In this document: piece by piece, positions 3,275 through 28,541 of the stretch
Numbering within the stretch: position 1 is the first letter of the stretch
How the letters are laid out: every line of letters begins with the position of its first letter
Virus record (IMG/VR): IMGVR_UViG_3300012920_000166
Coordinates: 1-30,310 of that record
Reading direction: 5' to 3' (one strand)
From: a virus
DNA: 30,310 nt
The notes under the pieces: generated by a model
What the model saw: only the letters and a program-made list of their open reading frames with translations
Told to the model about the DNA's origin: nothing
The model's database searches: none
Translations under genes and position numbers: made by a program

Positions 3275-4035
3275 TTTTGTGACATCCTTTTGTTGGCCTT
3301 AAATTTCTGATCGACCAGGGCCATGTTTTCTTCACCGAGCTGGTCAATCAAATTAAAGTTTGCTTTCCAGAGTTTATCCATCGTCACTTGTGACTTGCCG
3401 CTGAGTTGGTATTTCCTAAAGATCTCTACAAGCTTTTCGCTATAGTCCTCGGGTGTATTGAGTGCGTGGCCGCAAGGTTCGCCGTTGTGCCAGTAAGGTT
3501 GCCATACCGGCATTTGTCCAAGTAATTCCTGTTCTGGTTCTTCTGGCGTCTCTGGTTCTATTGGATGCACACTCACATCTATCTCTTTTTTTTGAGGCTC
3601 CTCTTTCTTTTTTTCTGCAAGCTCTTTGTCTTTTTGTTTTTTGATTGCATCCCAGTCGGCCTCATCTTGTGAATAAGCACCATACAAACCAACAAGCTTT
3701 ATAATTACTCGATCCTTTGCACGTTTCTCAGCCATTGCATAAGGATAGCTTTGTTGGTTCTTACCTCGATCGATGTTGATTGGCATAGCCTCACCGATGG
3801 ACCATTCAACTTTATCGCCAAGCCTACCAGTTACGCAAAGAACACAGATCCTTTCTTGTGCATTTGACTCTACAATTACCGGGGCATCAAACGTTACACC
3901 CTTACTTGCTGCAATTTTTTCTAGTGTTTTGTGTAATAACACATAAGAACCGTGACAATTCCAACCATCTTTTTTTGGATCTAGGCCAAGTTCTTTAAAT
4001 ACTTCGATTACATTTTGCGGTATGTCGTGTTTCAT
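3271..4035 (-). CDS. Probable single-strand-annealing-type recombination protein
   Basis: A 254-residue protein. The N-terminal domain (~1-130) contains SYPYAMAEKRAKDRVI at ~96-111 followed by KLVGLYGAYSQDEAD. In my experience this pattern occurs in uncharacterised phage proteins placed with ERF/Rad52-like annealing proteins. A Lys/Glu/Pro-rich low-complexity linker follows (~130-170), then a small helical C-terminal domain, an arrangement common in phage annealing proteins. It is coupled (ATGA) to the Gp157-family gene, a frequent partner of phage recombination genes, and RusA is encoded nearby. The role (annealing complementary single strands during replication-linked recombination) is inferred from pattern and context, not from a decisive motif. 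Confidence 0.45.
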   Translation of the reverse strand: MKHDIPQNVIEVFKELGLDPKKDGWNCHGSYVLLHKTLEKIAASKGVTFDAPVIVESNAQERICVLCVTGRLGDKVEWSIGEAMPINIDRGKNQQSYPYAMAEKRAKDRVIIKLVGLYGAYSQDEADWDAIKKQKDKELAEKKKEEPQKKEIDVSVHPIEPETPEEPEQELLGQMPVWQPYWHNGEPCGHALNTPEDYSEKLVEIFRKYQLSGKSQVTMDKLWKANFNLIDQLGEENMALVDQKFKANKRMSQK

Positions 4036-4517
4036 TTTACCCTCACAGTTACGCCAGGTTGACCGGCTCTAAGTTCAGCACCAGGAACAAACTCCCTGGC
4101 CTCTAGTTGTTGTTTGATTGCAGCCAGGTCGGGAGATTTTTTTACTCGCATCAGCTGAGTTGGTATTTCTTCCGGGTCTACTATGCAGACGTTTTGCCTG
4201 GCTTTTGTTCTGCTTACCGTCGCAAGTGGATGCTGTACTTTCTTTGATCCTATCGCGTCAAGCAAGTGACCGATTGTTTGAGATATTGCATCAGCCTTAT
4301 CATTCAGTCGTGCCGCTCGATCCTGGTAAGTTTTAGCCAGGGCTTTCACCGCTTCCTCGTTTGCCTTTACTTCCTGGCGCTCTTGGATCAGTTGACCCAG
4401 GACATCCATTGCATCCGTCTCACCGTCGAGCGTGTCCAGGAAACAATCCTCATCGTCTCCGACCATTGCCCGAATGTTATCGGCCATACGCCTGATTTCT
4501 TCATAGTTAATCAACAT
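4032..4517 (-). CDS. Siphovirus Gp157-family protein
   Basis: A 161-residue protein of the Gp157 family. It has the family's layout: LDGETDAMDVL at ~29-39, a long coiled coil with many K/E/A residues (~45-90), then a beta-rich end with PLATVSRTKARQNVCIVDPEEIP. It closes with PDLAAIKQQL and FVPGAELR, matching the conserved 'PDK.AIK..L...VPGA' end. Members are widespread in phages beside single-strand annealing genes and SSBs. A link to phage resistance in Streptococcus has been reported for the founding member, but the biochemical role is not settled. It overlaps both neighbours, showing one translationally coupled operon. Confidence 0.85.
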   Translation of the reverse strand: MLINYEEIRRMADNIRAMVGDDEDCFLDTLDGETDAMDVLGQLIQERQEVKANEEAVKALAKTYQDRAARLNDKADAISQTIGHLLDAIGSKKVQHPLATVSRTKARQNVCIVDPEEIPTQLMRVKKSPDLAAIKQQLEAREFVPGAELRAGQPGVTVRVK

Positions 4518-6173: not shown

Positions 6174-6923
6174 CTAAGCTGCTATTTCAAATAATGGTAA
6201 GGGAGCTAACTCCTGATGATTAACTTTTGCGTTAATTCGATCGTTAAACTGTTGAACATGATTAACGTACTTGTTTTTACTGTAACACTGATTGATTGCT
6301 AAGTTACAGCTGTCGGCGCTATCCCATCCCCAATTTTGTAACTGGCCTAACCCTCGCATCATGTGAACCCAGGGTCGTTCCTGGCCACTTTGCAAAGCCA
6401 ACCAATCAATTCTTGCCAACGCAGTCTTGGCTCGTAAATGCCAAGCGCTACCCTCTTTTGCTTTTGATATGTCAAACTCACCGCAGCTGCCCCAACCAAC
6501 AAAGTTAAACATCATGCACAACTTATCTAATTGCTCAAAACTTTCATTCATGTGCCATATTGCCATTGCTCGTTCCGGGTATTTAAGCTTGTTACCTCTG
6601 ATGCACTCAGCAATAAGCATTAAGTTATCTTCCTCAGAGCCGCCGATAACGTCGGGAATAACAGCAACAGCTTGTGGGCATCGCTCCATTGCAGCGTTCG
6701 CCCAACTGTAAAAACCATCCCACCATTCCGCATTAAGCTCGATGCCTTTTTTCCAAGCAGTAAAAGCTCCGTTGTCTAAAATTAATATTTGATCGTCACC
6801 AACAAGATCAATGCACTCGTCAAGTTGCTCGGGGTGCATATAGCTAACACAGAAGCTACAGCCTTTAAGCTGTGGCAATAATCTTTTGGGAGTTATCGGA
6901 GTTCCGTGAACAATTCTTTTCAT
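6174..6923 (-). CDS. DpdA-like / tRNA-guanine transglycosylase-fold enzyme
   Basis: A 249-residue protein with features of the TGT/DpdA TIM barrel. LDNGAFTAWKKG at 49-60 corresponds to the DSGG-F region, with Asp50 as candidate catalytic acid. IPDVIGG follows at 89-95, FVGWGSCGEF at 141-150, and HMMRGLG then WDSADSC at 187-206, where the second catalytic Asp of TGTs lies. Phage DpdA enzymes exchange guanine in DNA for 7-deazaguanine bases, blocking restriction. It is shorter than bacterial TGT and lacks an obvious Cys-rich zinc site, as in phage DpdA. No queC, queD, queE, folE or precursor transporter is visible here, so the base donor would come from the host. An RNA-directed or other TIM-barrel role remains possible. 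Confidence 0.6.
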   Translation of the reverse strand: MKRIVHGTPITPKRLLPQLKGCSFCVSYMHPEQLDECIDLVGDDQILILDNGAFTAWKKGIELNAEWWDGFYSWANAAMERCPQAVAVIPDVIGGSEEDNLMLIAECIRGNKLKYPERAMAIWHMNESFEQLDKLCMMFNFVGWGSCGEFDISKAKEGSAWHLRAKTALARIDWLALQSGQERPWVHMMRGLGQLQNWGWDSADSCNLAINQCYSKNKYVNHVQQFNDRINAKVNHQELAPLPLFEIAA

Positions 6924-7389: not shown

Positions 7390-7662
7390 ATGAAAAAAAG
7401 GCGTCAAAGTTTAGGAAATCATGACAAATTAGTAACGTTTGTTGTTCGATTACCTGGTGCATTAAAGAAACGGTTAGAAGATTACAGCGATCGATCTGGG
7501 CAATCCCAAGCATCTATTATTACAAGCCTGGTGGCCGATCACATTCCAAATGATGGGGATGATGCGATTACATTGCCGGAGCCACCAGTTCGGGATGATT
7601 TAGATCTATCGGACAACAGGGTTGATTTAAAAAAATGGTTAGCTGAACATGGCAAGAGTTGA
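7390..7662 (+). CDS. Ribbon-helix-helix (Arc/CopG-like) regulator
   Basis: A 90-residue protein. Residues ~13-50 fit a ribbon-helix-helix: strand VTFVVRLP, helix ALKKRLEDYSDRSG, then helix QSQASIITSLVADHI. Such proteins bind DNA as dimers through the paired strand in the major groove. The acidic C-terminal part (~52-90) is probably flexible, ending in a short helix. It is the first gene of the rightward transcript and lies beside the inverted repeat in the divergent promoter, so it likely controls that region, including itself. A weak AGGT precedes the ATG. It overlaps rusA by 14 bases. Confidence 0.8.
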   Translation: MKKRRQSLGNHDKLVTFVVRLPGALKKRLEDYSDRSGQSQASIITSLVADHIPNDGDDAITLPEPPVRDDLDLSDNRVDLKKWLAEHGKS

Positions 7663-8062
7663 TTTCTGGTTAACAGGTCAACCAGTCGGCAAGGGCCGAC
7701 CCAGGTTCACCAGGCAAGGACGAGCATACACACCGGCCAAAACAAAAGCATACGAAATGAAACTGGCCGCCGCTGCATCAAACGCAATGCAAGAATTAAA
7801 GCTGGAACCAACGACCAAAAGATGCGAGGTTCATATCTTAGCACAGTTCGAGATACCTAAATCATGGTCTAAGAAGCGCAGAGACGCCGCTGTGATGGGG
7901 GAAGTGTTCCCTGGTAGGCCAGACATCGATAATATTGTTAAGGCTGTCCTGGACGCTTGTAACGGCGTTACGTTCGAGGATGATGCCCAGGTATTCAGAG
8001 TAATGGCGACCAAAAGATACGGAGATCCAATGATCCTGGTAACGGTGGAGTGGGATGAATGA
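7649..8062 (+). CDS. rusA: RusA-family Holliday junction resolvase
   Basis: A 137-residue endonuclease that cuts four-way DNA junctions. The family signatures are clear: GKGRPRF at 14-20; FPGRPDIDNIVKAVLD at 87-102, giving Asp92 and Asp94; and NGVTFEDDAQV at 105-115, giving Asp111/112. These are the metal-binding acids of RusA, followed by a conserved-type Lys near 122. Length is normal. It acts on recombination or replication intermediates before packaging and fits the annealing-type recombination genes on the opposite strand. It overlaps both neighbours (14 bases upstream, ATGA downstream). Confidence 0.93.
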   Translation: MARVDFWLTGQPVGKGRPRFTRQGRAYTPAKTKAYEMKLAAAASNAMQELKLEPTTKRCEVHILAQFEIPKSWSKKRRDAAVMGEVFPGRPDIDNIVKAVLDACNGVTFEDDAQVFRVMATKRYGDPMILVTVEWDE

Positions 8063-8898
8063 AGCCACCAATGGCTAAAAACAAAGACCTGAGAAACTTC
8101 GCCGTGATACCCATCGAAGCTTGCCGGGACCACAGATTGCATGGAACATCTGCATTCTCAGTCCTGGCTCTGATCTGTAGCTATTGCGATTACCTGGGCG
8201 TAACCTGGGTAAGCCAACAAAGAATTGCTAATGAACTGGGCGTCTCAAGACCAGCTGTTGCCAGGCAAATCAAAAAACTGAAAGATTACGGATACATCAA
8301 AAACGCCATGCCTCTCAATAAATGGCAAAAGACCAGGTCAATGCGTGTCATATTCAAAAGAGCGCCAGAAGATCTGGATGAGGCCAAAGCAAACCTCACA
8401 GCTGCACAACAGATAGGTGTCGAGGAAGGACGTAGAAAGGCAGCTGATGAGTTCAAAGCCAGGGCAAAATCTAAACCTCAGCCTGTGGATAACTCTCAAC
8501 CAGGTGTAACATCAGAGGTTACGTCAGGTGTAACACCATTAGGTTACACAACCACACCATATAACAATATAGATATAAGTATTAATAGTGATGAAGCTAG
8601 ACAGTTTTGTGTTATGTTTTTGAGATCTGCTGAAAGCTTTGGAACTCCAAGAGTATTGAATGATCGAGACATCACAGTGATGGAAACCTGGATTAGAAAC
8701 GGATTAACCAGGCAAAAATGGGCTGATATACTCCAAAATCACTGGGATTATTGCAGAAACAACCATCGTGACTACGCTAGAGGCATCGGATACTTTGCAA
8801 ACCCGGTCGATCGGGTAACAACCGGCAGAACAAAAGCCCAGGGAAAAACTGCAAAAAGTATTCTAAAAGCGACATCGAGCCGTTTAAAATACCGATAA
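8059..8898 (+). CDS. Replication initiator-like protein (N-terminal HTH, lambda O-like layout)
   Basis: A 279-residue protein. The N-terminal domain (~10-95) is a helix-turn-helix/winged helix: VSQQRIANELGVSRPAVARQ at ~51-70, then KKLKDYGYIK. It matches the N-terminus of phage replication proteins that bind the origin. A charged helix (~103-140) and a Pro/Gly/Thr/Val linker (~145-170) follow. The C-terminal domain (~178-260) with RNGLTRQKWADIL and DYARGIGYFANP is DnaD-like in pattern and could contact the host helicase loader. The linker codons contain short inverted and direct repeats followed by AT-rich DNA, as in lambda O. No phage helicase or polymerase is present, so it would recruit host replisome proteins. 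It could instead be only a regulator. Confidence 0.7.
   Translation: MKPPMAKNKDLRNFAVIPIEACRDHRLHGTSAFSVLALICSYCDYLGVTWVSQQRIANELGVSRPAVARQIKKLKDYGYIKNAMPLNKWQKTRSMRVIFKRAPEDLDEAKANLTAAQQIGVEEGRRKAADEFKARAKSKPQPVDNSQPGVTSEVTSGVTPLGYTTTPYNNIDISINSDEARQFCVMFLRSAESFGTPRVLNDRDITVMETWIRNGLTRQKWADILQNHWDYCRNNHRDYARGIGYFANPVDRVTTGRTKAQGKTAKSILKATSSRLKYR
8502..8590 (+). repeat. Candidate replication origin: repeats plus AT-rich stretch inside the initiator gene
   Basis: Four related 7-mers alternate in orientation: GTGTAAC (8504-8510), GTTACGT (8518-8524), GTGTAAC (8528-8534) and GTTACAC (8543-8549). Same-direction copies are 24-25 bases apart. Directly after comes a roughly 35-base AT-rich run (8556-8590) with almost no G or C. 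Iterons followed by an unwinding element inside the initiator gene is the lambda/P22-type origin layout. The repeats also encode a repetitive linker peptide, so protein-level repetition is an alternative. Confidence 0.5.
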
Positions 8899-17705: not shown

Positions 17706-19907
17706 ATGCGCGTTACACAGTTTCAGACTAATTTCTCTGTTGGCGAACTTGATCCTTTATTACGCGCTAGAACGGATTTAGCTCAATATCAAAACGCATT
17801 AGAGCAAGCTCAGAATGTACTTGTGCAGCCACAAGGCGGCATAAAACGCCGGGACGGATTAAAGTTTATTCATAACTTTGGTGGTACTTTTACAGATTTC
17901 AAACTCATTCCATTTGAATTTAGTGTTACAGATAGCTATCTGTTAGCGTTTGTTGCCGGGCGTATTTATGTTTTTAAAGATGGTGTTTTGCAAACAAACA
18001 TAAATGGATCTGGCAATGATTATCTAGCAGCCTCATCAATTACAGCGGCCATGCTTGATGAGCTTCAATACACACAAGCGGTTGATACCTTAATTCTATG
18101 TCATGAGGATTTACAAACGAAACGCCTGGTTAGAAACTCTGATACAAATTGGACGTTAGAAAACTTACCTCTGCTTAACTTACCTCAATATCCTTACGGA
18201 TTTAGTACACACTCTCCGAATTTTACTATTACTCCGAGCGCAACTACAGGTAACATAACGGTTACGGCATCAGGCGTTACAACGGATACTGGTACGGCTC
18301 AGGCCGGCGGTGCTGATACTATTACACTAAAAGCAGCTAGTAGCTACACAAGCGACGATCAGCCCAATGGAATGTTTATTACTTTAACATCTGGAACTGG
18401 ATCGGGACAAACCCGACACGTCGAGGATTATGTTGCGTCAACAAAGGTACTTACAGTGTACCCAGCGTGGGATACTCCGCCAAATAGTTCTACAGGTTAT
18501 AAGGTAGAGGCATTTGCTCCATCTACGGTAAATGAATACTTACAAGTCTTATCAACATTTGGTCGAGCTAGATATGTTGAATATGTAAGCGCAACTGTAA
18601 TGAAAGCATTTGTGGAAGTTCCATTTTTTGACACAGGCGCGATTGTAGCTGGTGAGTGGGAAAGTGAACATGGGTATGAGGACGTTTGGTCAAATAATCG
18701 AGGGTGGCCGAGATCAGCAACATTTCATGAGGGGCGCTTATATTTTGGTGGGTCAAAGTCTCGACCCAATACTATCTGGGGATCTAGGGTAATTGATTAC
18801 TTTAACTTTGATCCTGGTACTGCTCTTGATGATGAAAGTGTAGAAGCCACAATCAACACTAATCAATTGAATGCAATTGTTGGGATTGTCGCTGGTGCAG
18901 ATCTTAGGATCTTTTCAACTGGTGGTGAGTTTGTTGTTGTTCAATCAGAAGATTCGCCAATTACACCCGCTAACTTTTTAATCCGTCCACAAACAAGACT
19001 CGGTACTAAACCAGGTGTTCCGATTGAAGATCTTAATGGTGCATCAGTATTTGTGCAGCGCCAGGGTAAATCTCTCAATGCGTTTCAATATGGTGACACA
19101 ACCAGATCATATCAGGTTCAACAGGTTTCAGTATTATCGTCACATTTGATAAAAACGCCAGTAGACCTCGCGGCACGTCGATCAACCTCAACAGATGAGG
19201 CCGACCGTTTATTTCTTGTAAATGGTGATGATGGATCAATGGCAGTTTATTCAATCCTGGTGGGACAACAGGTTATTGCTCCAAGCGAGTTTATAACGGA
19301 TGGTGAATTTATTGCGGTAGCGGTTGAGTTGTCCGATGTGTATTGCATTGTAAAACGTACCGTAAATTCAGCAACTATTTATACATTAGAAAAATTTGAT
19401 AGTTCTTTGACCTTAGATAGCGCTAAGACTGGCGGAGCGGCCTCCTCAGTAACGATGGATCACCTTCAAGGGGAAACGGTCCATATCGTGCGAGATGATG
19501 TTGTGGAGCCAACACAGACAGTACCAGCGTCACCTTTTACAATTACATTTGCAACGGCGGCTACTTCTAGTTACCAGGTTGGGTTGGATTATACAGTGTC
19601 GGCTAAAACAATGCCAACTGAGCCAACACTTTCAACCGGGTCTGTTCAAGGTGTTAAGAAAAGAATTGTTCAGATTGATGCGTTGCTACATGAAACGAAA
19701 AATCTTTCTTTAAATGGCAAACAAATTTCTTTTCGTAATTTTGGTGAGGATGTCTTAGATACAGCTGTTCAGCCATTTACTGGCTTAAAAACTGCACATG
19801 GTATTCTTGGATATAGTGCAACAGGACAAATTACTATAACTCAAACGGTTCCATTACCTATGACGGTATTAGGATTGGAATATAAACTTAGCGTGGGGAC
19901 TTCCTAA
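17706..19907 (+). CDS. Tail tubular protein B (gp12-like nozzle)
   Basis: A 733-residue T7 gp12-type nozzle protein. The N-terminus QTNFSVGELDPLLRARTDLAQYQNALEQAQNV is characteristic, as are the PQGGIKRRDGLKFI segment, SHSPN-type loops and FFEGRLYFGGSKSRPNTIWGS-like 'FHEGRLYFGGSKSRPN' near 340. The middle holds Thr/Gly/Ser-rich beta segments (~175-250), a local insertion of the kind that varies between phages. Six copies would form the conical tail nozzle. It overlaps the next gene by one base. Confidence 0.92.
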   Translation: MRVTQFQTNFSVGELDPLLRARTDLAQYQNALEQAQNVLVQPQGGIKRRDGLKFIHNFGGTFTDFKLIPFEFSVTDSYLLAFVAGRIYVFKDGVLQTNINGSGNDYLAASSITAAMLDELQYTQAVDTLILCHEDLQTKRLVRNSDTNWTLENLPLLNLPQYPYGFSTHSPNFTITPSATTGNITVTASGVTTDTGTAQAGGADTITLKAASSYTSDDQPNGMFITLTSGTGSGQTRHVEDYVASTKVLTVYPAWDTPPNSSTGYKVEAFAPSTVNEYLQVLSTFGRARYVEYVSATVMKAFVEVPFFDTGAIVAGEWESEHGYEDVWSNNRGWPRSATFHEGRLYFGGSKSRPNTIWGSRVIDYFNFDPGTALDDESVEATINTNQLNAIVGIVAGADLRIFSTGGEFVVVQSEDSPITPANFLIRPQTRLGTKPGVPIEDLNGASVFVQRQGKSLNAFQYGDTTRSYQVQQVSVLSSHLIKTPVDLAARRSTSTDEADRLFLVNGDDGSMAVYSILVGQQVIAPSEFITDGEFIAVAVELSDVYCIVKRTVNSATIYTLEKFDSSLTLDSAKTGGAASSVTMDHLQGETVHIVRDDVVEPTQTVPASPFTITFATAATSSYQVGLDYTVSAKTMPTEPTLSTGSVQGVKKRIVQIDALLHETKNLSLNGKQISFRNFGEDVLDTAVQPFTGLKTAHGILGYSATGQITITQTVPLPMTVLGLEYKLSVGTS

Positions 19908-20365
19908 TGTCAGCAGCTCCATTATTTTTTGCCGGTGCTTCAATGTACTTATCAGCCAGGCAAGCTAAAGCGCAAAGAGAAGCGGCTAAAATGCAAGCCG
20001 AGGCATATGATGAGCAAGCGGCAGAAGCTTTACTGAAAGGGCGTTTTGAGGCTCTTGAGTACAGACAGCGCGGTGTCGATGCGTTGCGAAGGTTAAATGA
20101 GGTATTAGCGGCCAGTCTTGCTAGAGCGGCAGCTGGTGGTATTGATCCAACAAGTGGATCGGCGGCTGTAATTGATATGGCTAGTCAGGCAGAAGCAATC
20201 AGAGAAAAGAATATTTCTGAAAGTAATGCGCTCATGGCAGAAGGGGACGCGGCATTTCAAGCGGATCAATACAGACGAGCTGGGCAGATAGCTATTAAAA
20301 CTGGAAACGTACAAGCCGCATCAACAGTAGCAGCCGGCCTTATTAGAGTTGGTCAATTAGTGTAG
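19907..20365 (+). CDS. Internal virion protein B-like (gp14-like)
   Basis: A 152-residue, Ala-rich helical protein. It has a hydrophobic opening (APLFFAGASMYLSA), then charged Ala/Glu/Gln helices (AKAQREAAKMQAEAYDEQAAEA, ~20-41) and SLARAAAGGIDPTSGSAAVI at mid-length. This composition and position (after tail tubular B, before the large internal proteins) match T7 gp14, which is ejected and forms an outer-membrane pore in infection. The 'GGIDPTSGS' loop is common in gp14-like proteins. Confidence 0.75.
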   Translation: MSAAPLFFAGASMYLSARQAKAQREAAKMQAEAYDEQAAEALLKGRFEALEYRQRGVDALRRLNEVLAASLARAAAGGIDPTSGSAAVIDMASQAEAIREKNISESNALMAEGDAAFQADQYRRAGQIAIKTGNVQAASTVAAGLIRVGQLV

Positions 20366-20374
20366 GGTTAAGAT

Positions 20375-22930
20375 ATGGGACGAGCGCCAAGATATGAAAG
20401 AATGGGTGTAAGGGTTCGACAGCCCAGAGGCACAAGGTTTGCAGCGCAAGCTGAGGCTGTTCAATATCAAGAGGCCGTTTCCCAAGCTCTAGGCACAATG
20501 AGCGATTTTCTCTTTGAAAAGGGCGCTGAGGTTGCAGAACAAAGAGGTTTAGAACGTGTTAAGCAAGAAGGTGCTATTCCTATTCTTGAGGAGTTACAGC
20601 AACAAGGTGGTCCTAGAACAATAGAAGAAAAAACAGCGTATGAAGCGGCTAATAAATTAGCAGTTGCTGAAATCCAAACTGAAGCTGAGTTAGATATCAC
20701 AAAGGTTTTAGATGAGGGTCAGGCAAATAAAACCTCTTATAATGCAATACAATCAAAGCTATCTGATATCACTGATGGGTATTCTTCAGCTCTTTCATCT
20801 ATTGATCCGATATCAGCCGGTCTCTTACGACAGCGCTTAATTGAGGCAACCGGCAAAGCAGATATGCGTTATGCAAAGTGGTGGTCGGGAGAGCAAGAAA
20901 CAATACGGCGTGAAAAGCAAAATGTTGTAGCCGGAAACGCAGCTCAAACAATCCTTCAAAATGCTACAATGCCAGGCGCAACTACTTTGATGATTGACGC
21001 TGAGATTGCGGCTAGTGCTGATACTCTTAAAGATCTGGGTGTTGATGAGAAGGCACTTCAAGATTGGCAAGATGAAGTTAAGGCAAGCGCATATAAAAAC
21101 AATTATCTTTTCTCTTTTAATCAGCTCAGTGTAGAGGAGCAGGGTGAGGCAATAGAGCGTATTCTGGGCGGTGAGGCAAAAGATCTTTTACCTGGTATGG
21201 ATTACGAGGATAGTGTTCGTTTTGTAAATGGAATTTTGCGGCCCGAATATAACAGAAATGTATCTGTTTTAGGTTCTCAATCTAAATACGTTGTTAATAA
21301 AGTTTCGGATCAAAGTAAAATATTAGAAAGTGGTGGTCGCGTTAGCCAGGATGTTATCCAGGAAATGCGTAATCGAGCGATCGAAGTTGAGCAATATGAT
21401 GGTGGTGCAGCGGTACAAGCTGTTAATGAATTAGAGGGAGATACAAATATATACAGCGGCTTTCGTGCAATGAGCCTGGCAGAAATGGAAGCAACGGTTC
21501 GATTATATGCGGAAGGTATCGAGGGCGTCGGTATTGAAGGGAGAGACACTCCGCTTGAGGTAAAACGTTATGAGCAAGCTTCTAAGTTTTTTGAAAAGAT
21601 GCAAACTCAAATTGACCAGGACGCAATGGGATATGCCGAGCGTGTTGGGTTTATTGAGCGTAAACAGATTGTATCAATAGATGAGCAAGGCGCTTTGCAA
21701 CTTGATGATGTAGCTTTATCAGAACGTGCATTACAAGCCCAGCAAGTCGCTGATTACTATGGTTTGCCACAACCTAAAATGTTGTTTGCTGATGAAACAA
21801 GACAATTAGCGCTTGTTTTAGAAAGAGCTGAGGGCGCTGCAAAATTAAATATATTAGGTACGTTATCGAGCTTTGACCAGGCATCCGGCCAGGTTCTAAC
21901 AGATCTTGCTGATTATAATCCAGATCTTGCTTTGGTTGGTGCATTAATAAACAACGGATCAACTGAAACAGCGCTTTTAGCAATTGCCGGTCTTGAGAGA
22001 ATGAAAGCTGGAGAAAAACCAGCTTATTTTTCAGATCAAAACATAAGACCTGTATATGAAGAAGTTTTTGAGAGAGCGGTTACAACCCCAAGAGCAGCGC
22101 AAGCAATTAAGGGTGTTGCTAAAGCAATATATTTAGAATTAACAAGTAGGCGTGGAGTAAGTGGAGCAGTCTATGGACAAGCAACTGAAGATTTAGATGC
22201 GGAGTTGTATAAAGAGGCGCTACAGCTTGCCGCTGGTTATCGTTTAATAAACGGTAAAGAATATGGTGGAATCCAAGAAGTTCGGGGCGTCAAGACATTT
22301 ATCAATCCAAACTTAGATGCCGGAGCATATGAACGAATGCTAAATGAGCTAACGCCAGAGGCTCTTGCAAGTGTAACAGGATTAGATATTAGCCCGGCAT
22401 TGGCATCATCAATAAACGAAACAGATGATTATAAACTTCGTAATATTGGCGGTGATAAATACGTTATAGAGTATGGCAAGAATGGCGATGTTGCTGCTGC
22501 GGATAAAGAAGGTCGGCCAATAATATTTAATTCTCAAGAATTGTTTGAGGCATTAATTCCACAGCCACAAGCTTCACAAGACAGGTTTGGTAGTCTTTCA
22601 TCTATTTTCGGCACAAACGAATTACCAGAAAATATTACACAACCAGAGTTAGATTTTGAGGAAGCTATTGCTCCAGAAGTTCCGACAGAAAGCCCACCAT
22701 TATTAACAGCCGGTCAGTTGCCAGATAGACGTTTAAATAAAAAACAAACTAAGTTTTTAAGAAAACAAGTTGAAGCTGCAAAAATACCAGCGTCTGAATA
22801 TGAAACACGCATTAAGCCGTTTGCTGATAAAGTGCCAAATGAAGCGACAAATGATGAATTTGTTGATTATCTTGATGCGCTTTTTAAAGGTTTTAATAAA
22901 TCGTTTGAAGATTGGAAAGCTACACAATGA
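20375..22930 (+). CDS. Internal virion protein (gp15-like position)
   Basis: An 851-residue, mostly helical acidic protein with no enzyme motif that I can see. It starts GRAPRYERMGVRVRQPRGTR, then a long run of Glu/Gln/Ala helices. The last ~130 residues are Pro/Gln-rich (PQPQASQDRF, EVPTESPPLL) and then a helical end. The gene order (gp14-like, this, very large internal protein) equals T7 gp14-gp15-gp16, so it is probably the ejected core protein that builds the periplasmic tunnel. Sequence similarity to T7 gp15 is not evident by eye. The stop overlaps the next start (ATGA). Confidence 0.7.
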   Translation: MGRAPRYERMGVRVRQPRGTRFAAQAEAVQYQEAVSQALGTMSDFLFEKGAEVAEQRGLERVKQEGAIPILEELQQQGGPRTIEEKTAYEAANKLAVAEIQTEAELDITKVLDEGQANKTSYNAIQSKLSDITDGYSSALSSIDPISAGLLRQRLIEATGKADMRYAKWWSGEQETIRREKQNVVAGNAAQTILQNATMPGATTLMIDAEIAASADTLKDLGVDEKALQDWQDEVKASAYKNNYLFSFNQLSVEEQGEAIERILGGEAKDLLPGMDYEDSVRFVNGILRPEYNRNVSVLGSQSKYVVNKVSDQSKILESGGRVSQDVIQEMRNRAIEVEQYDGGAAVQAVNELEGDTNIYSGFRAMSLAEMEATVRLYAEGIEGVGIEGRDTPLEVKRYEQASKFFEKMQTQIDQDAMGYAERVGFIERKQIVSIDEQGALQLDDVALSERALQAQQVADYYGLPQPKMLFADETRQLALVLERAEGAAKLNILGTLSSFDQASGQVLTDLADYNPDLALVGALINNGSTETALLAIAGLERMKAGEKPAYFSDQNIRPVYEEVFERAVTTPRAAQAIKGVAKAIYLELTSRRGVSGAVYGQATEDLDAELYKEALQLAAGYRLINGKEYGGIQEVRGVKTFINPNLDAGAYERMLNELTPEALASVTGLDISPALASSINETDDYKLRNIGGDKYVIEYGKNGDVAAADKEGRPIIFNSQELFEALIPQPQASQDRFGSLSSIFGTNELPENITQPELDFEEAIAPEVPTESPPLLTAGQLPDRRLNKKQTKFLRKQVEAAKIPASEYETRIKPFADKVPNEATNDEFVDYLDALFKGFNKSFEDWKATQ

Positions 22931-25900
22931 TCCAATTCGATCGATCAGATGTTTATGATTTGACAGGCGTTCCTACTATTTCGGAGCCTGTATCAGATTT
23001 TGCTGCGAATTTTTTTGCGGCGAGAGAAAGCATGAAGCTTAACGATCAATCTCAAAGTAGAGACAAAATACTTAAAGAACTATGGGGTCCAATTGTAGAG
23101 GAGTTAAATGAAACGTTCCCTAACCAGGGCTTTCTTGGCCGTGACTTTGAAAACCCTGGAGACTTCTTAAACATTGGTTTGGGCATATACAGCACACAAG
23201 GCGGTCCAGAGGATCGTTATAACTTCGCAGTAAACAATATTATGAAGTTTATGAATACGAACCAGGAGAGCCTTCCTGATAGTCTCAAGGGGATTACAAT
23301 CGATAGCCTAGAGCAAATTGCAAAAGAACGAGCGCAAGCGGCAAGAAAACTAAATGAAGAAATAGCTTCAAGAAACTTAGATTTTAGTGGAACGCTAGGT
23401 CAGTTTACTGGCGGAGTTACTGGCATCATAGATGATCCAGTCAATGCTTTTGGGATTATGGGCGCTTCAGCTAAAACATTGTGGCGATTTGCACTTACTG
23501 AGGCTGTGATTGGCGCTGGCGTGGGCGCAATGGCTGAGACCGGCGTAAAAGAATGGTATGATGAATTAGGTTATGATTACACGTATCAAGATTTTATTCG
23601 CAATGTTGGTTTAAATGCGGTCGGTGGCGCTGTCTTTGGCACAGGCATAAAGATTGGAGCTGATGGAATACGGAAAGGTTGGGATGCTTTAAGTAAATCT
23701 GGTCGTGCAAATGATGATAGTAAAACCTTAGCGGATGCAGCTGAGGCAGCTGAGGAGTTTGAGGCAGATAATCCGTTTACTGAACCAGATCTTCCTCCGG
23801 CCCAGGCAGAACATAACAGCCGGGCAATCGCGGCAGAGGCAGCTGTTGAGAACAACAAAGCGCCGGTTATGCCTACAGAAACAACAATTCAGCCTAAAGA
23901 ATATGAAGGCGATAATTTAGATGGTATGGTTTTTAAAATCCCAGCTAAAAATATTTTAGTCGATGCAAAAAGATTTCAGTTTAAATCTGGTGGTGATGAG
24001 TTTGGAGTGACTGAGCGTTTGCAAGGCGTCACTGAATGGAATCCCGACTATGCTGGTACTATTATGGTTTGGGAAGATATAGATGGTAAAGTATTTGTTG
24101 CAGATGGACATCAGCGTGTAGGTTTAGCAAAGCGCATAATGTCAAATGATCCGTCGCAGCAAATAAATCTTATTGCTCGTAAGTTTCGTGAAGTTGATGG
24201 TGTAACCGCAGAACAAGCAATGATAAGAGCCGCTGGTGCTAATATCGCAGCCGCAGATCCTAAAGTTCAAAAAAGTTTATTAGTTGATGCTGCTAAAGTT
24301 TTGCGAATTGATCCCAACAAAATTGATGAATTAAATTTACCGCCAAAATCTGTTTTAGTACAACAAGCGAGAGATCTTGTTGTTTTAAATGATAATGCTT
24401 TTGGTGCAATTATAAATGAAGTTATCCCGGCAAACTATGGGGCTATTGTTGGTAGGCTAATTGATGATCCTGATTTACAAGACGCTGCTATAAAAGTGTT
24501 ATCAAAATCAGATCCACAAAATGTATTTCAAGCTGAAGCAATTGTTCGCCAGGTACGTGAAACCGATTTAATAAAAGAAACCCAGGTTTCTCTGTTTGGT
24601 GATGAGGATGTAGCCACAAGTTTATATAGTGAACGCGCCAAAGTCCTGGATCGCACTGTAAAATTATTAAGGGCAGATAAATCATCTTTTGAAAACCTCA
24701 GCAAAAATGCAGAACGTATTGAAGCAGAGGGAAATAAATTAGTTAAAGATCAAAACCAAAGGAGGGCCGACCAAGATGCCCAAGCGATCACGTTACTCCA
24801 AGCGCTTGCGAACCGAAAAGGAACGCTCAGTGATGAACTCTCAGCCGCAGCCAGAAGCGCAAAAGAACAGGGATATGCAGACGCAGCCCGAAACTTTGCC
24901 GAGGCTGTCAGACGAGGAGTTGAACGAGGAGATTTTGATAGGGCGGCAACTGGCGATGTTGGACGCGCTGTCGATGTTGCGCCGCAAAGCCGCAAGGATG
25001 CGATCGAGGACGAACCAACCCTAGAGGGATTTGACGAGCCTACAGGACCAGCTGCTGAAGCCCAGGCAAATCAAATGGCTCTAGATACATTTAGAACTCT
25101 CGAGGAGGTTACAGAAGCCAGGCCTGTTTTGCAGTCACTAAAAGATAGACAGCCTGTTGAGACTGTTGATGATATATATAAGATTGCCCAGGAATCCCAA
25201 GACTTCATTGTTAATATTGCTAAAAATATAGAAACAGATTTAGGCGTTAAAGTAGAAAATCCTGGTCTAAAAAAAATTGATGCAGCAAAATCTAAAATGC
25301 AACGTAAGGCATATCAATCTGCTAAAGAACTAACAGATATTTCTAGGGTTGGATTTATTACTAACAAAGCTGCTGATGCTGATGCAATTTCTAAACGCTT
25401 GGCTCAAAGTGCAGAAATATTAGATGAAGGATGGGGCGTTACACCAGCTGGTTATTTCGATCGTAAAATTTTAGTTCGTACACCCAATGGGATCGTTTCA
25501 GAAATTCAAATATGGTCTCCAAAGCTAATAGAAGCAAAGACTACAAAAGGTCACAAGTTATACAAACAACAAGATAAATCTAATGATCCTAAAGAAATTG
25601 AACGATTAGAAACAGAGCAAAGAAAGCTTTATTCAAAAGCGTTATCTGAAGAAGATGCTTCTTTTAAAAATTTAGTCGGTATGGAAAAAGGTCCGAAAGT
25701 ACTTTCAAATGTAGACATAAAAGCGCTTTCATCCGCAATCACACGGCCAGAGTTACGAACATCCAGGCCGTCAACAGCTGTCCAGGAACCGCCTGGTGTA
25801 AGTATTGCCAGGGCTTCCGAAGGTGAAAAAGATATAGCTGGACGTCCGTCCCAGGAAACTAGAAAAGTATCAGACATAGATATTACTCCTGAGCAAAGAG

Positions 25901-26076
25901 TAACTGATATCGCTGAAGAAATCAAGCCCGAGGATTTTGATTTAGAAATCCCACTTGCATCGACGCTTGATGATGAAGGAAACCCAGTCGCAATAACCAG
26001 GACATTGCGTGACATCAAGTCCGATATTGATGCAGAGGACGCGCTAATTAATCGTTTGGGAGTTTGTGGGCTATGA
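22927..26076 (+). CDS. Giant internal/ejection protein with ParB-like and RelA/SpoT-like domains
   Basis: A 1049-residue protein; ATG 22927 (ATGA overlap) is preferred to an upstream TTG. Residues ~1-180 are helical. ~180-245 are hydrophobic and Gly/Ala-rich (TLWRFALTEAVIGAGVGAMA and GGAVFGTGIKIG), fit for membrane insertion as in T7 gp16. ~320-560 is ParB-like: VADGHQRVGLAKR at 391-403, as in DdrB-type ParB domains of polyvalent phage proteins. ~560-760 is charged linker. ~780-880 resembles a RelA/SpoT nucleotidyltransferase: TDISRVGFI (Asp804), GYFDRKI at 842-848, EIQIW (Glu859) and GHKLY at 875-879. No lysozyme or transglycosylase motif is seen. It likely enters the cell with the DNA. Activity of either domain is inferred. 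Confidence 0.75.
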   Translation: MIQFDRSDVYDLTGVPTISEPVSDFAANFFAARESMKLNDQSQSRDKILKELWGPIVEELNETFPNQGFLGRDFENPGDFLNIGLGIYSTQGGPEDRYNFAVNNIMKFMNTNQESLPDSLKGITIDSLEQIAKERAQAARKLNEEIASRNLDFSGTLGQFTGGVTGIIDDPVNAFGIMGASAKTLWRFALTEAVIGAGVGAMAETGVKEWYDELGYDYTYQDFIRNVGLNAVGGAVFGTGIKIGADGIRKGWDALSKSGRANDDSKTLADAAEAAEEFEADNPFTEPDLPPAQAEHNSRAIAAEAAVENNKAPVMPTETTIQPKEYEGDNLDGMVFKIPAKNILVDAKRFQFKSGGDEFGVTERLQGVTEWNPDYAGTIMVWEDIDGKVFVADGHQRVGLAKRIMSNDPSQQINLIARKFREVDGVTAEQAMIRAAGANIAAADPKVQKSLLVDAAKVLRIDPNKIDELNLPPKSVLVQQARDLVVLNDNAFGAIINEVIPANYGAIVGRLIDDPDLQDAAIKVLSKSDPQNVFQAEAIVRQVRETDLIKETQVSLFGDEDVATSLYSERAKVLDRTVKLLRADKSSFENLSKNAERIEAEGNKLVKDQNQRRADQDAQAITLLQALANRKGTLSDELSAAARSAKEQGYADAARNFAEAVRRGVERGDFDRAATGDVGRAVDVAPQSRKDAIEDEPTLEGFDEPTGPAAEAQANQMALDTFRTLEEVTEARPVLQSLKDRQPVETVDDIYKIAQESQDFIVNIAKNIETDLGVKVENPGLKKIDAAKSKMQRKAYQSAKELTDISRVGFITNKAADADAISKRLAQSAEILDEGWGVTPAGYFDRKILVRTPNGIVSEIQIWSPKLIEAKTTKGHKLYKQQDKSNDPKEIERLETEQRKLYSKALSEEDASFKNLVGMEKGPKVLSNVDIKALSSAITRPELRTSRPSTAVQEPPGVSIARASEGEKDIAGRPSQETRKVSDIDITPEQRVTDIAEEIKPEDFDLEIPLASTLDDEGNPVAITRTLRDIKSDIDAEDALINRLGVCGL

Positions 26077-28541
26077 GTACATTTAAGAAATGTGTAGAAG
26101 ATGGAGTGGCCGCCAAAGAGATTACCCAGGAACAAGCGGATGAATATAGCAATTTGTTTGATGATCTTGTTGAGCAATACAATAAACAGTTAGGCCCAGG
26201 ACCGGCAGAAACAAAAGCTGGAATTGATGCGGCTCAAGCGGTGCGTAAAAAAGCTATTGAACGCAAACGTCAAACAATGCTCCAGGCAAAAACTTGGAAG
26301 CAAATAATGCTTGATATGGAAAACTATAGATCAATTACTGGTCAACAAAATATGAACCGGGCAGCCCTGGCGTTTTTTGAACAGGATTCAACATCTAGAT
26401 TTGCAAGTATAACACAGCTTCAGCAAACGATCGAGCGTAGTGCAACGCGAAAAATGGATAAGTTTTTAGCAACATTTCGCCGGGATCTTATTGGACGTAC
26501 TCGTAATAAAGCTCAACTAAAGAATATGATTAAAGAAGTGTTTGGCGAAAATACAGGGGATGCTTCAGCTAAGGAATTATCATTAGCCTGGAAAGAGGCA
26601 GCTGAGTATTTACGAAAACGTTTCAATGCAGCTGGTGGCGCTATACCGATAAGATCAGACTGGGGTTTGCCACAGCAACACAGCACATTAAAAGTACGTG
26701 AAGCGAGTTTTGAGGAATGGCGTGAGTTTATCTTTGCACGTCTTGACCTGGAAAAAATGAAAGATATGGAAACCGGGTTACGTTTTTCATCGGAAAAACT
26801 TGAGACTGTTTTATTTGATGTTTATGAAACAATCCGAACTGAAGGGTATAGTAAAGTTAAGCCAGGCGGTAGGCCAGTTGGCGGAAAGTCTTTAGCAAAC
26901 CGTAATGCAGATCATCGTTTTCTAGTATTTAAAAATGCCGATGCCTGGATGGAATATCAACAGAAGTTTGGTAATGATAATCCTTTTGACACTATGATGG
27001 GCCATATTAGCAATATGTCCAGGGACATTGCATTTATGGAACGCCTGGGGCCGAACCCTATGGCAACAAAAAACTTTATCAAACAAACGTTATCTAAATC
27101 AGCGGCCGGTGATGCAAAAGCAGAAAGCGCAGCTAGGTCCGCAGTTAGAAAAATAGATCAGCTTTACAATATTTTACAAGGAACTCATAATACGCCAGTC
27201 AATCGTTTCTGGGCAACAACGTTTGCTGGAACCAGGCAATTGTTACAATCAGCTATGCTTGGATCAACTGCAATAACAGCAATTACAGATGTAAACTTTA
27301 GCCGTATCGCTCGACGTATGAACGGATTGCCGCAAACAAAAACTCTTAATCAGTATTTAAAATTATTGCAGCCATTAGGCGCTGAGGAAAAGGGTAAGTT
27401 AGCTATTCGTTTAGGGCTTACAGCTGAAACATGGTCAACTTTAGCGGCTGCACAAATGCGTTATGTGGGTGATATATCAGGCCCAGAGGTTACACGTCGA
27501 ATTGCTGATTTTGTAATGAGAGCGTCATTTTTATCTCCAATGACACAAGCCGGACGGTGGGCGTTTGGTATGGAGTTCCTGGGAACACTAGCTGATAATG
27601 TGGGTAAGTCGTTTGATGAGCTTGATCCAATGTTCCGTAAAGCTATGGAGCGTTACAATATTAACGGCGATCGATGGGATATTATTCGTCAAACAGAACT
27701 TTATGACTACAAAGGTTCTAAGTTTTTAAGAGCTGAGGATATTGAGTTTCGTACTGATATTGATCCCCGGCTTGCCAGGGAAATGGCTACAGACATTATG
27801 CGTATGGTCGAGACAGAAACAAATTATGCAATTCCATCTACATCAGTACGTGGTCGAGCGGCATTAACTGGCGATATTCCTCCAGGTACTATTATGGGTG
27901 AACTGGCTCGCTCATTTGCTATGTATAAAAACTTTGGAGTTACCCTGGTAAATACTCATATTATGCGTGGGGCTGGTGAAAAAGGAGTAAAAGGTAAAGG
28001 TCGTTATTATGCAGATTTATTGATAAGTACCACCATTATGGGGGCGTTAGCCTTACAGCTTAAAGAAATGGCTAAAGGTAGAGATCCGCGCCCAATGGAT
28101 GATCCAGAATTTTGGGGAGCAGCATTTTTGCAAGGCGGTGGCCTAGGTATTTATGGAGATTTTCTATTCGCAGATCTTAATCGTTTCGATCGAGGGCTTC
28201 CCACAACGATAGCTGGCCCAGTTGTTGGCTTTGCCGATGATGTAAAGAATTTAACATTAGGTAATATAATCGAAGCAGCTCAGGGAGAGGACACAAAAGT
28301 AGCTAGTGAAATGATTGGTTTTACCCAACGTTACGCGCCAGGTGGAACAATATGGTATGTTCGTTTAGCTCTTGAAAGAATGCTATTTGACCAGGCAAAA
28401 CTATGGGCTGATCCTGATGCTGGAAAGAAAATAAGAAGGACAAAACGTAAATATGCGCGTGAATATGGGCAAGATTTTTGGTGGGAGCCTGGTAAAATGA
28501 CACCGAAACGAACGCCAAATATAGAAAACATCTTTAGGTAA
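26073..28541 (+). CDS. Large internal/ejection protein (gp16-like C-terminal type)
   Basis: An 822-residue protein coupled to the previous gene by ATGA. N-terminal ~60-350 is helical and charged. The second half has features I know from large ejection proteins of mosaic podoviruses: RFWATTFAGTRQLLQSAMLG and SAITAITDVNF-like segments (~385-415), ELARSFAMYKNFGV, then DLLISTTIMGALALQLKEMA (membrane-like, ~645-665). FWGAAFLQGGGLGIYGDFLF (~682-701) and a basic C-terminal end (KKIRRTKRKYAREYGQDF) follow. With the preceding gene it seems to split or duplicate the role of T7 gp16. No catalytic motif is evident. Confidence 0.75.
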   Translation: MSTFKKCVEDGVAAKEITQEQADEYSNLFDDLVEQYNKQLGPGPAETKAGIDAAQAVRKKAIERKRQTMLQAKTWKQIMLDMENYRSITGQQNMNRAALAFFEQDSTSRFASITQLQQTIERSATRKMDKFLATFRRDLIGRTRNKAQLKNMIKEVFGENTGDASAKELSLAWKEAAEYLRKRFNAAGGAIPIRSDWGLPQQHSTLKVREASFEEWREFIFARLDLEKMKDMETGLRFSSEKLETVLFDVYETIRTEGYSKVKPGGRPVGGKSLANRNADHRFLVFKNADAWMEYQQKFGNDNPFDTMMGHISNMSRDIAFMERLGPNPMATKNFIKQTLSKSAAGDAKAESAARSAVRKIDQLYNILQGTHNTPVNRFWATTFAGTRQLLQSAMLGSTAITAITDVNFSRIARRMNGLPQTKTLNQYLKLLQPLGAEEKGKLAIRLGLTAETWSTLAAAQMRYVGDISGPEVTRRIADFVMRASFLSPMTQAGRWAFGMEFLGTLADNVGKSFDELDPMFRKAMERYNINGDRWDIIRQTELYDYKGSKFLRAEDIEFRTDIDPRLAREMATDIMRMVETETNYAIPSTSVRGRAALTGDIPPGTIMGELARSFAMYKNFGVTLVNTHIMRGAGEKGVKGKGRYYADLLISTTIMGALALQLKEMAKGRDPRPMDDPEFWGAAFLQGGGLGIYGDFLFADLNRFDRGLPTTIAGPVVGFADDVKNLTLGNIIEAAQGEDTKVASEMIGFTQRYAPGGTIWYVRLALERMLFDQAKLWADPDAGKKIRRTKRKYAREYGQDFWWEPGKMTPKRTPNIENIFR

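What the first reader, a model, noticed from the sequence alone, without database searches (positions are those of the whole stretch)
22927..26076. Ejected virion protein carrying ParB-like and RelA/SpoT-like domains
At the T7 gp16 position, this 1049-residue protein has a membrane-type Gly/Ala segment, a ParB-like ADGHQR motif (392-397), and near its C-terminus Asp804 (TDISR), GYF at 842-844, Glu859 (EIQI) and GH at 875-876. These are in the order and rough spacing of RelA/SpoT synthetase motifs. If it enters the cell with the DNA, it could make or sense an alarmone, or modify RNA like related toxins, before any phage gene is expressed. T7 gp16 has a transglycosylase instead; none is seen here.
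Basis: partly seen in the sequence, partly recalled or inferred. Interest (0 to 1): 0.72.

Follow-up and report, generated by a model that had tools for sequence, protein, structure and literature searches.

The report
Alarmone-synthetase domain on phage ejection protein
A short-tailed phage carries, on a protein that is probably packed in its particle and pushed into the bacterium with the DNA, an enzyme domain related to bacterial alarmone makers, so the virus may be able to trigger a starvation-like signal or drain the cell's energy at the moment of infection.

Summary
Every motif is at the stated coordinates, and residues 733-928 fold confidently (pLDDT 92) into an alarmone-synthetase (SYNTH) domain. 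The family profile matches the solved toxin Tas1/Apk1 at E=4e-24, and Foldseek's 50 best PDB matches are all alarmone synthetases. Asp804 and Arg807 are invariant in 93 distinct relatives, as is Glu859. The ParB-like domain is also supported: the fold resembles ParB/Noc, and ADGHQR is invariant apart from its first Ala.

(2) Its acceptor-site motif is GYFDRK, neither the RSH (SxH) nor the Apk (GxN) form, so the product is open. (3) The structural module resembles temperate Uetakevirus-type podoviruses, not only T7. (4) Residues 1-290 and a 45-residue C-terminal tail form a conserved scaffold; the middle is exchangeable cargo. One near relative is 66-90% identical outside the SYNTH domain and 24% inside it.

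Relatives occur in many viral contigs and alphaproteobacterial prophages, without a recognised immunity gene. RelA/SpoT domains in phage polyvalent proteins were predicted in 2017, so this is a new variant of a known kind. Activity and ejection are inferred, not shown.

The parts
22927..26076 (+). Ejection-type polyvalent protein, 1049 aa
   Evidence: ORF with ATGA overlaps at both ends; conserved gene order in viral contigs and prophages
22927..23802 (+). N-terminal scaffold (residues 1-292), mostly helical, Gly/Ala-rich amphipathic segments at about 155-245
   Evidence: Profile A6 also matches proteins with other or no cargo: L004, L030 (both in the profile), Vibrio phage ZCVPP1 (3.5e-24), virus SI2 (8.7e-11)
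23923..24366 (+). ParB-like domain (residues about 333-480)
   Evidence: Foldseek hits ParB/Noc at E about 2e-4; strand-loop-helix order in model; PHROG 10691 and 21
24100..24117 (+). ADGHQR motif (392-397)
   Evidence: D393-R397 invariant in the 31-sequence alignment A5, A392 nearly invariant
24367..25086 (+). Helical region following ParB (481-720)
   Evidence: Model; most conserved part between near relatives, up to 91% identity
25123..25710 (+). SYNTH alarmone-synthetase-type nucleotidyltransferase domain (residues 733-928)
   Evidence: AF2 pLDDT 92.2, pTM 0.85; PDB fold hits Tas1, SaEAS, small alarmone synthetases, Rel; profile vs Tas1 E=4e-24
25336..25347 (+). syn2: Asp804 (metal/catalysis) and Arg807 (ATP), D..R spacing as in SaEAS D121/R124
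   Evidence: Invariant 93/93; roles from PMC12691689
25450..25467 (+). syn3 region GYFDRK (842-847), acceptor side
   Evidence: GYFDRK in 63 of 93 domains, D845 92/93, K847 90/93 (collection partly biased by this pattern)
25501..25509 (+). syn4: Glu859 and Gln861
   Evidence: E 93/93, Q 92/93; equivalents of Apk1 E382 and the paired Gln
25939..26073 (+). Conserved C-terminal tail (1005-1049) ending RLGVCGL
   Evidence: Profile also matches relatives with other cargo or none: L004, L030, SI2
19907..20365 (+). gp14-like internal virion protein
   Evidence: phrog_418 E=3.5e-13; Pfam T7_gp14 E=0.027, below cut-off
20375..22930 (+). gp15-position ejection protein
   Evidence: Position and synteny; no informative family match
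26073..28541 (+). Virion structural protein directly downstream; leaves no room for an immunity gene
   Evidence: phrog_684 E=1e-173; nearest isolates SI2, ZCVPP1, Tyrion

Best explanation
This is a polyvalent ejection protein of a short-tailed phage. The scaffold (residues 1-290 plus the last 45) packs it in the capsid core and passes it into the cell. The cargo between them is a ParB-like domain with a helical region and a SYNTH domain of the Tas1/Apk1/exported-synthetase branch. Once refolded in the host cytoplasm, the SYNTH domain most likely moves pyrophosphate from ATP onto the 3'-OH of an acceptor, probably a purine nucleotide. That would yield an alarmone ((p)ppApp- or (p)ppGpp-like) and use up ATP at the start of infection, to hold host transcription, replication or purine synthesis while the phage genome, perhaps handled by the ParB-like domain, is installed. 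Shown: domain fold, conserved catalytic residues, purifying selection, cargo exchange, gene order. Inferred: packaging, ejection, activity, acceptor, benefit.
For: Profile to Tas1 4e-24 and SaEAS 1e-5. AF2 domain model pLDDT 92 with the 50 listed PDB hits all alarmone synthetases. D804, R807, E859 93/93, Q861 92/93, Y843 89/93. SYNTH domain dN about 0.12 with very high or saturated dS against same-type relatives L009 and L010. More than 100 viral stretches encode the domain, most in large phage-type proteins. Same gene order in prophages of Seohaeicola, Salipiger and Roseobacter. Neighbouring internal-virion and structural genes; T7 gp16-C is placed in the host cytoplasm, four copies in the core and six after ejection (PMC8954989). 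Related enzymes turn over about 1e5 per minute (PMC12691689), so even 4-6 copies could make around 5e5 molecules a minute, comparable to the ATP of a small cell (own estimate).
Against: No virion proteomics and no assay. The syn3 motif differs from both known acceptor classes, and two Apk1 ATP-site residues (K353, N370) align with S828 and K847 rather than being kept (my reading of the alignment). Pfam RelA_SpoT misses the window protein. The SYNTH domain of relative L001 has lost the syn3 Tyr and the syn4 Gln, so some members may be changed or inactive. ATP loss at once would also hurt the phage, so activity must be limited, transient or directed at something else.
Confidence: 0.7

Rival explanations
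1. RNA-directed toxSAS: the domain pyrophosphorylates tRNA 3'-CCA ends (as FaRel2 and CapRel do) and stops host translation, rather than making a free alarmone.
For: Same fold superfamily; the acceptor motif differs from the known nucleotide-accepting classes; several toxSAS target tRNA (PMC11782079).
Against: Closest relatives by profile are nucleotide-accepting Tas1 and SaEAS; FaRel2 binds adenine with R95, five residues after its D90, whereas here the Arg sits at D+3 as in SaEAS. Stopping translation would also stop the phage.
Confidence: 0.15
2. The domain acts against competitors or defences: it blocks superinfecting phage or an alarmone-type host defence, and is of little use in a normal single infection.
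For: Cargo swaps between near relatives, as expected under conflict; Iyer et al. 2017 read such cargo as conflict weapons (PMC5512222).
Against: No target system is seen; the enzymatic core is unchanged throughout the family.
Confidence: 0.2
3. Nucleotide-sensing or purely structural domain: a catalytically dead or slow SYNTH fold used to bind nucleotide or to assemble the ejection channel.
For: Non-canonical syn3; divergent member L001; ejection proteins of this scaffold tolerate very different inserts.
Against: Strict conservation of Asp, Arg, Glu, Gln and two Lys in 89-93 of 93 sequences, which a structural role would not demand; relatives without the domain exist (L004, SI2).
Confidence: 0.1

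Closest known systems
Tas1/Apk1 (type VI effector (p)ppApp synthetase, PDB 6OX6)
   Same: Best profile and fold match; Asp, Arg (D+3), Glu, Gln and trailing G-H-x-x-Y region shared
   Different: About 18% identity; syn3 GYFDRK instead of GxN; K353/N370 not kept; carried by a phage ejection-type protein, with no adjacent immunity gene found
Exported alarmone synthetase SaEAS (PDB 8VX3)
   Same: Second-best match; D121/R124 and E182/Q184 equivalents kept; made for export without adjacent immunity gene
   Different: Sec signal peptide and single domain; here a 1049-residue virion-type protein
MuF polymorphic toxins Apk2 of temperate phages
   Same: Alarmone-synthetase domain on a phage virion-type protein (PMC12226406)
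   Different: MuF head-protein carrier, with IapK and Aph1 immunity genes; none found here
Phage polyvalent proteins (Iyer et al. 2017, PMC5512222)
   Same: Large multidomain phage protein joining ParB-like and RelA/SpoT-type domains; alphaproteobacterial relatives carry ddrB-ParB, one with a lysozyme
   Different: The 2017 paper placed RelA/SpoT in spirochaete and epsilonproteobacterial prophages and MuF proteins; here a subfamily with its own syn3 in alphaproteobacterial prophages and uncultured podoviruses, on a shared scaffold
T7 gp16
   Same: Large ejection-position protein after gp14- and gp15-position genes
   Different: No transglycosylase in this chain and no family match to gp16; nearest structural genes are of SI2, ZCVPP1 and Uetakevirus phages

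Membership tests
SYNTH (RelA/SpoT-type alarmone synthetase) superfamily | SYNTH nucleotidyltransferase fold | tested here: met
   pLDDT 92 model; 50 of 50 listed PDB hits are alarmone synthetases
SYNTH (RelA/SpoT-type alarmone synthetase) superfamily | Catalytic Asp and Glu (syn2, syn4) | tested here: met
   D804 and E859 93/93
SYNTH (RelA/SpoT-type alarmone synthetase) superfamily | Match to Pfam RelA_SpoT above cut-off | tested here: not met
   Window: none; distant relative L145: 27.6 bits, cut-off 27. A limit of the Pfam model, since fold and profile evidence is strong
SYNTH (RelA/SpoT-type alarmone synthetase) superfamily | Pyrophosphate transfer from ATP | not testable with these tools
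   Needs biochemistry
Apk/Tas1-type adenosine 3'-pyrophosphokinases | syn2 Arg placed three residues after the Asp | tested here: met
   R807 93/93; SaEAS D121/R124 and the Apk signature RYT versus AVR. SaEAS also makes pppGpp, so this is not proof of adenosine specificity
Apk/Tas1-type adenosine 3'-pyrophosphokinases | syn3 GxN | tested here: not met
   GYFDRK
Apk/Tas1-type adenosine 3'-pyrophosphokinases | Adenine nucleotide as acceptor | not testable with these tools
   Needs biochemistry
Apk/Tas1-type adenosine 3'-pyrophosphokinases | Neighbouring immunity gene (Tis1/IapK/Aph1 type) | tested here: inconclusive
   None between this gene and the next structural gene; no HD_4 hydrolase above cut-off in 19 records, though these may be fragments
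Polyvalent proteins of phages | Several unrelated effector-type domains in one large phage protein, with orthologues in varied combinations | tested here: met
   ParB-like plus SYNTH here; ParB-like region without SYNTH in SI2, SYNTH only in L030, neither seen in L004; lysozyme plus ddrB-ParB plus SYNTH in L051
ParB superfamily | ParB N-domain fold with conserved polar motif | tested here: met
   Foldseek ParB/Noc E 2.4e-4, from a model of only moderate confidence; ADGHQR conserved
ParB superfamily | Detectable homology to ddrB-ParB (Pfam PF18763) of related prophage proteins | tested here: not met
   hhalign of A7 and A8 found nothing, with shallow alignments
T7 gp16 | Transglycosylase and sequence match to gp16 | tested here: not met
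   No match
T7 gp16 | Ejected into the cell | not testable with these tools
   Inferred from gene order

The most novel reading that the evidence does not exclude
A virion-delivered synthetase of a new acceptor class (GYFDRK syn3) makes an alarmone, possibly not one of the known ones, within the first minute of infection, so that the phage sets the host's stress state before any phage gene is expressed.
Probability: 0.3. Interest if true: 0.85.

Novelty: new variant of a known kind. Interest (0 to 1): 0.62.

Why it matters
Phage ejection proteins are mostly regarded as channel builders. Here a widespread family, 93 distinct domains in viral contigs and bacterial (mostly alphaproteobacterial) genomes, carries a conserved enzyme of the alarmone-toxin type, in many members on a shared scaffold with exchangeable cargo. 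That makes a prediction standing since 2017, that phages inject alarmone synthetases, testable on a defined domain and in cultured strains that carry the gene (Salipiger, Seohaeicola, Roseobacter). Pfam's RelA_SpoT model misses nearly all of these, so they are easily overlooked.

Tried and rejected
Single-sequence searches of Pfam and PDB found nothing useful; only profiles did. Cultivated phages show no tblastn match to the SYNTH domain, apart from a weak 21.6% match of the L001 version in Bordetella phage PHB04 (E=0.07). hhalign between the window ParB-like region and ddrB-ParB gave nothing, with shallow alignments. The T7 RNA polymerase search was uninformative because no control rang. An integrase above cut-off was found in one record only. 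The full-length model (pLDDT 66.6, pTM 0.31) is too uncertain for domain arrangement. Two key papers on Tas1 and on (p)ppApp hydrolases were not held. Considered and rejected: chance motif order (E=4e-24), and a RelA-type long RSH (no HD hydrolase match; profile far nearer Tas1).

Full report
Observation. The ORF 22927-26076 encodes 1049 residues; its ATG overlaps the upstream stop codon, and its own stop overlaps the next ATG. The window is a 30,310-base virus record. Upstream lie genes for the head-tail adaptor, major head protein, two tail proteins and a gp14-like internal virion protein; directly downstream is a virion structural protein of phrog_684, then a tail fibre.

The C-terminal domain. 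Alone, the sequence has no meaningful match in Pfam or PDB. Relatives from IMG/VR gave a three-sequence profile whose best PDB match was Tas1 (2.4e-11) and a 40-sequence profile matching Tas1 at 4e-24, SaEAS at 1e-5 and small GTP pyrophosphokinases at about 0.002. AlphaFold2 gave pLDDT 92.2 and pTM 0.85. Foldseek's 50 listed PDB hits are all alarmone synthetases, Tas1 and SaEAS first. Among predicted structures of viral proteins the best hits are uncultured phage proteins named RelA/SpoT, DdrB-like and ART-PolyVal-like.

Catalytic residues. Among 93 distinct domains, D804, R807 and E859 are invariant; K782 is kept in 92, Q861 in 92, K790 in 89, Y843 in 89. D804 and R807 were outside the patterns used to collect relatives; E859 and GYFDRK were partly inside them. 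From PMC12691689, D121A inactivates SaEAS, and R124, E182 and Q184 are ATP-binding residues; these correspond to D804, R807, E859 and Q861 (alignment). In the same alignment Apk1 N370 falls on K847 and K353 on S828, so those two contacts are not kept. PMC12226406 gives GxN at syn3 for adenosine and SxH for guanosine enzymes; this family has GYFDRK. The acceptor therefore cannot be read from the motif.

The ParB-like domain. The full-length model is moderate (pLDDT 66.6, pTM 0.31), yet Foldseek finds ParB and Noc (2.4e-4) and, separately, Tas1 and SaEAS. D393-R397 of the ADGHQR motif are invariant in 31 aligned sequences. A profile link to ddrB-ParB of related prophages was not found.

Modular architecture. 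Identity to the window in relative L001 is 84% (N-terminus), 66% (ParB-like), 90% (helical region) and 80% (tail) but 24% in the SYNTH domain; L040 shows 86% in the helical region and 30% in SYNTH; L009 the reverse trend, 59% N-terminal and 79% SYNTH. Profiles of the N-terminus and the last 45 residues also match L004 (no SYNTH match and no ADGHQR-type motif seen), L030 (SYNTH only) and SI2 (ParB-like region only); Vibrio phage ZCVPP1 matches clearly at the N-terminus and only weakly at the tail. L004 and L030 were themselves in the N-terminal profile, and L030 in the tail profile; SI2 and ZCVPP1 were in neither, and L004 was not in the tail profile. The conserved scaffold thus carries exchangeable cargo. 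L002 has an extra insertion before its SYNTH domain that reads like a second ParB-like domain (my reading of the translation; not tested).

Wider family. More than 120 viral stretches encode a relative. Bacterial genomes with the gene include Seohaeicola, Salipiger, Roseobacter, Albimonas and Pleomorphomonas; L051, L052, L054 and L101 carry ddrB-ParB, L051 also a phage lysozyme, and L054 a transglycosylase-like region. The downstream 840-residue structural gene is shared between the window and the loci from Seohaeicola, Salipiger, Roseobacter and others, and the upstream gp15-position gene with several of them. The structural gene's nearest isolates are SI2, ZCVPP1 and, further off, Uetakevirus Tyrion, which has an integrase. 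No immunity gene lies between this gene and the next structural gene in such loci, and no (p)ppGpp/(p)ppApp hydrolase family (HD_4) above cut-off was found in 19 records, unlike MuF Apk2. The host of the window phage is not known; the prophage relatives suggest Alphaproteobacteria (inference).

Mechanism. [quoted passage not shown] If this protein behaves alike and the domain works as fast as SaEAS or Apk1 (about 1e5 per minute, PMC12691689), a single particle could make around 5e5 product molecules a minute, comparable to the ATP of a small bacterium (own estimate). Effects on host transcription, replication and purine synthesis would follow as for known alarmones. Expression late in the phage cycle, or the need to refold after ejection, may explain the missing immunity gene. 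These steps are inference.

Novelty. Iyer et al. 2017 (PMC5512222) described RelA/SpoT domains in phage polyvalent proteins, including ones with ParB-like domains, and suggested alarmone-like host takeover. Ahmad et al. 2025 (PMC12691689) list MuF, T6SS, T7SS, T3SS and contractile-injection carriers for Apk1-like enzymes; 'polyvalent' does not occur in its main text. The kind is known; the GYFDRK branch, its scaffold and its spread in alphaproteobacterial prophages and uncultured podoviruses appear new in the literature that I could search.

Noticed in passing
window 25939-26073 (residues 1005-1049); L004, L030, L006 (SI2): A C-terminal tail, mostly ending in R-L-x-x-C, is conserved even where the cargo differs; it may be a packaging or ejection signal.
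   Followed up: partly
L002 10260-10480 (residues about 754-825 of P0003): An inserted stretch with VRDGNS looks like a second ParB-like domain between the helical region and the SYNTH domain.
   Followed up: no
L001 9388-9966: A near relative of the window protein has a strongly diverged SYNTH domain (DSYR, WGWR, VEWYL), perhaps another acceptor class or an inactive form.
   Followed up: partly
L056 2671-4887 and 4906-6579; L066: In Ancylobacter, a 558-residue protein with the domain lies just downstream of a gene with a Ser/Thr protein-kinase domain, and Xanthobacter has a similar gene pair; possibly a non-phage use.
   Followed up: no
L071 5974-6467: The domain is split over two overlapping frames in an alphaproteobacterial MAG; a pseudogene or an assembly error.
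   Followed up: no
window 6174-6923 (-): Match to phrog_887, queuine tRNA-ribosyltransferase; possibly DNA deazaguanine modification.
   Followed up: no
window 4032-4517 (-), 7649-8062, 8059-8898: Mu Gam-like end protection, RusA-like resolvase and replication-initiation (O-like) protein: replication genes more like temperate phages than T7.
   Followed up: partly
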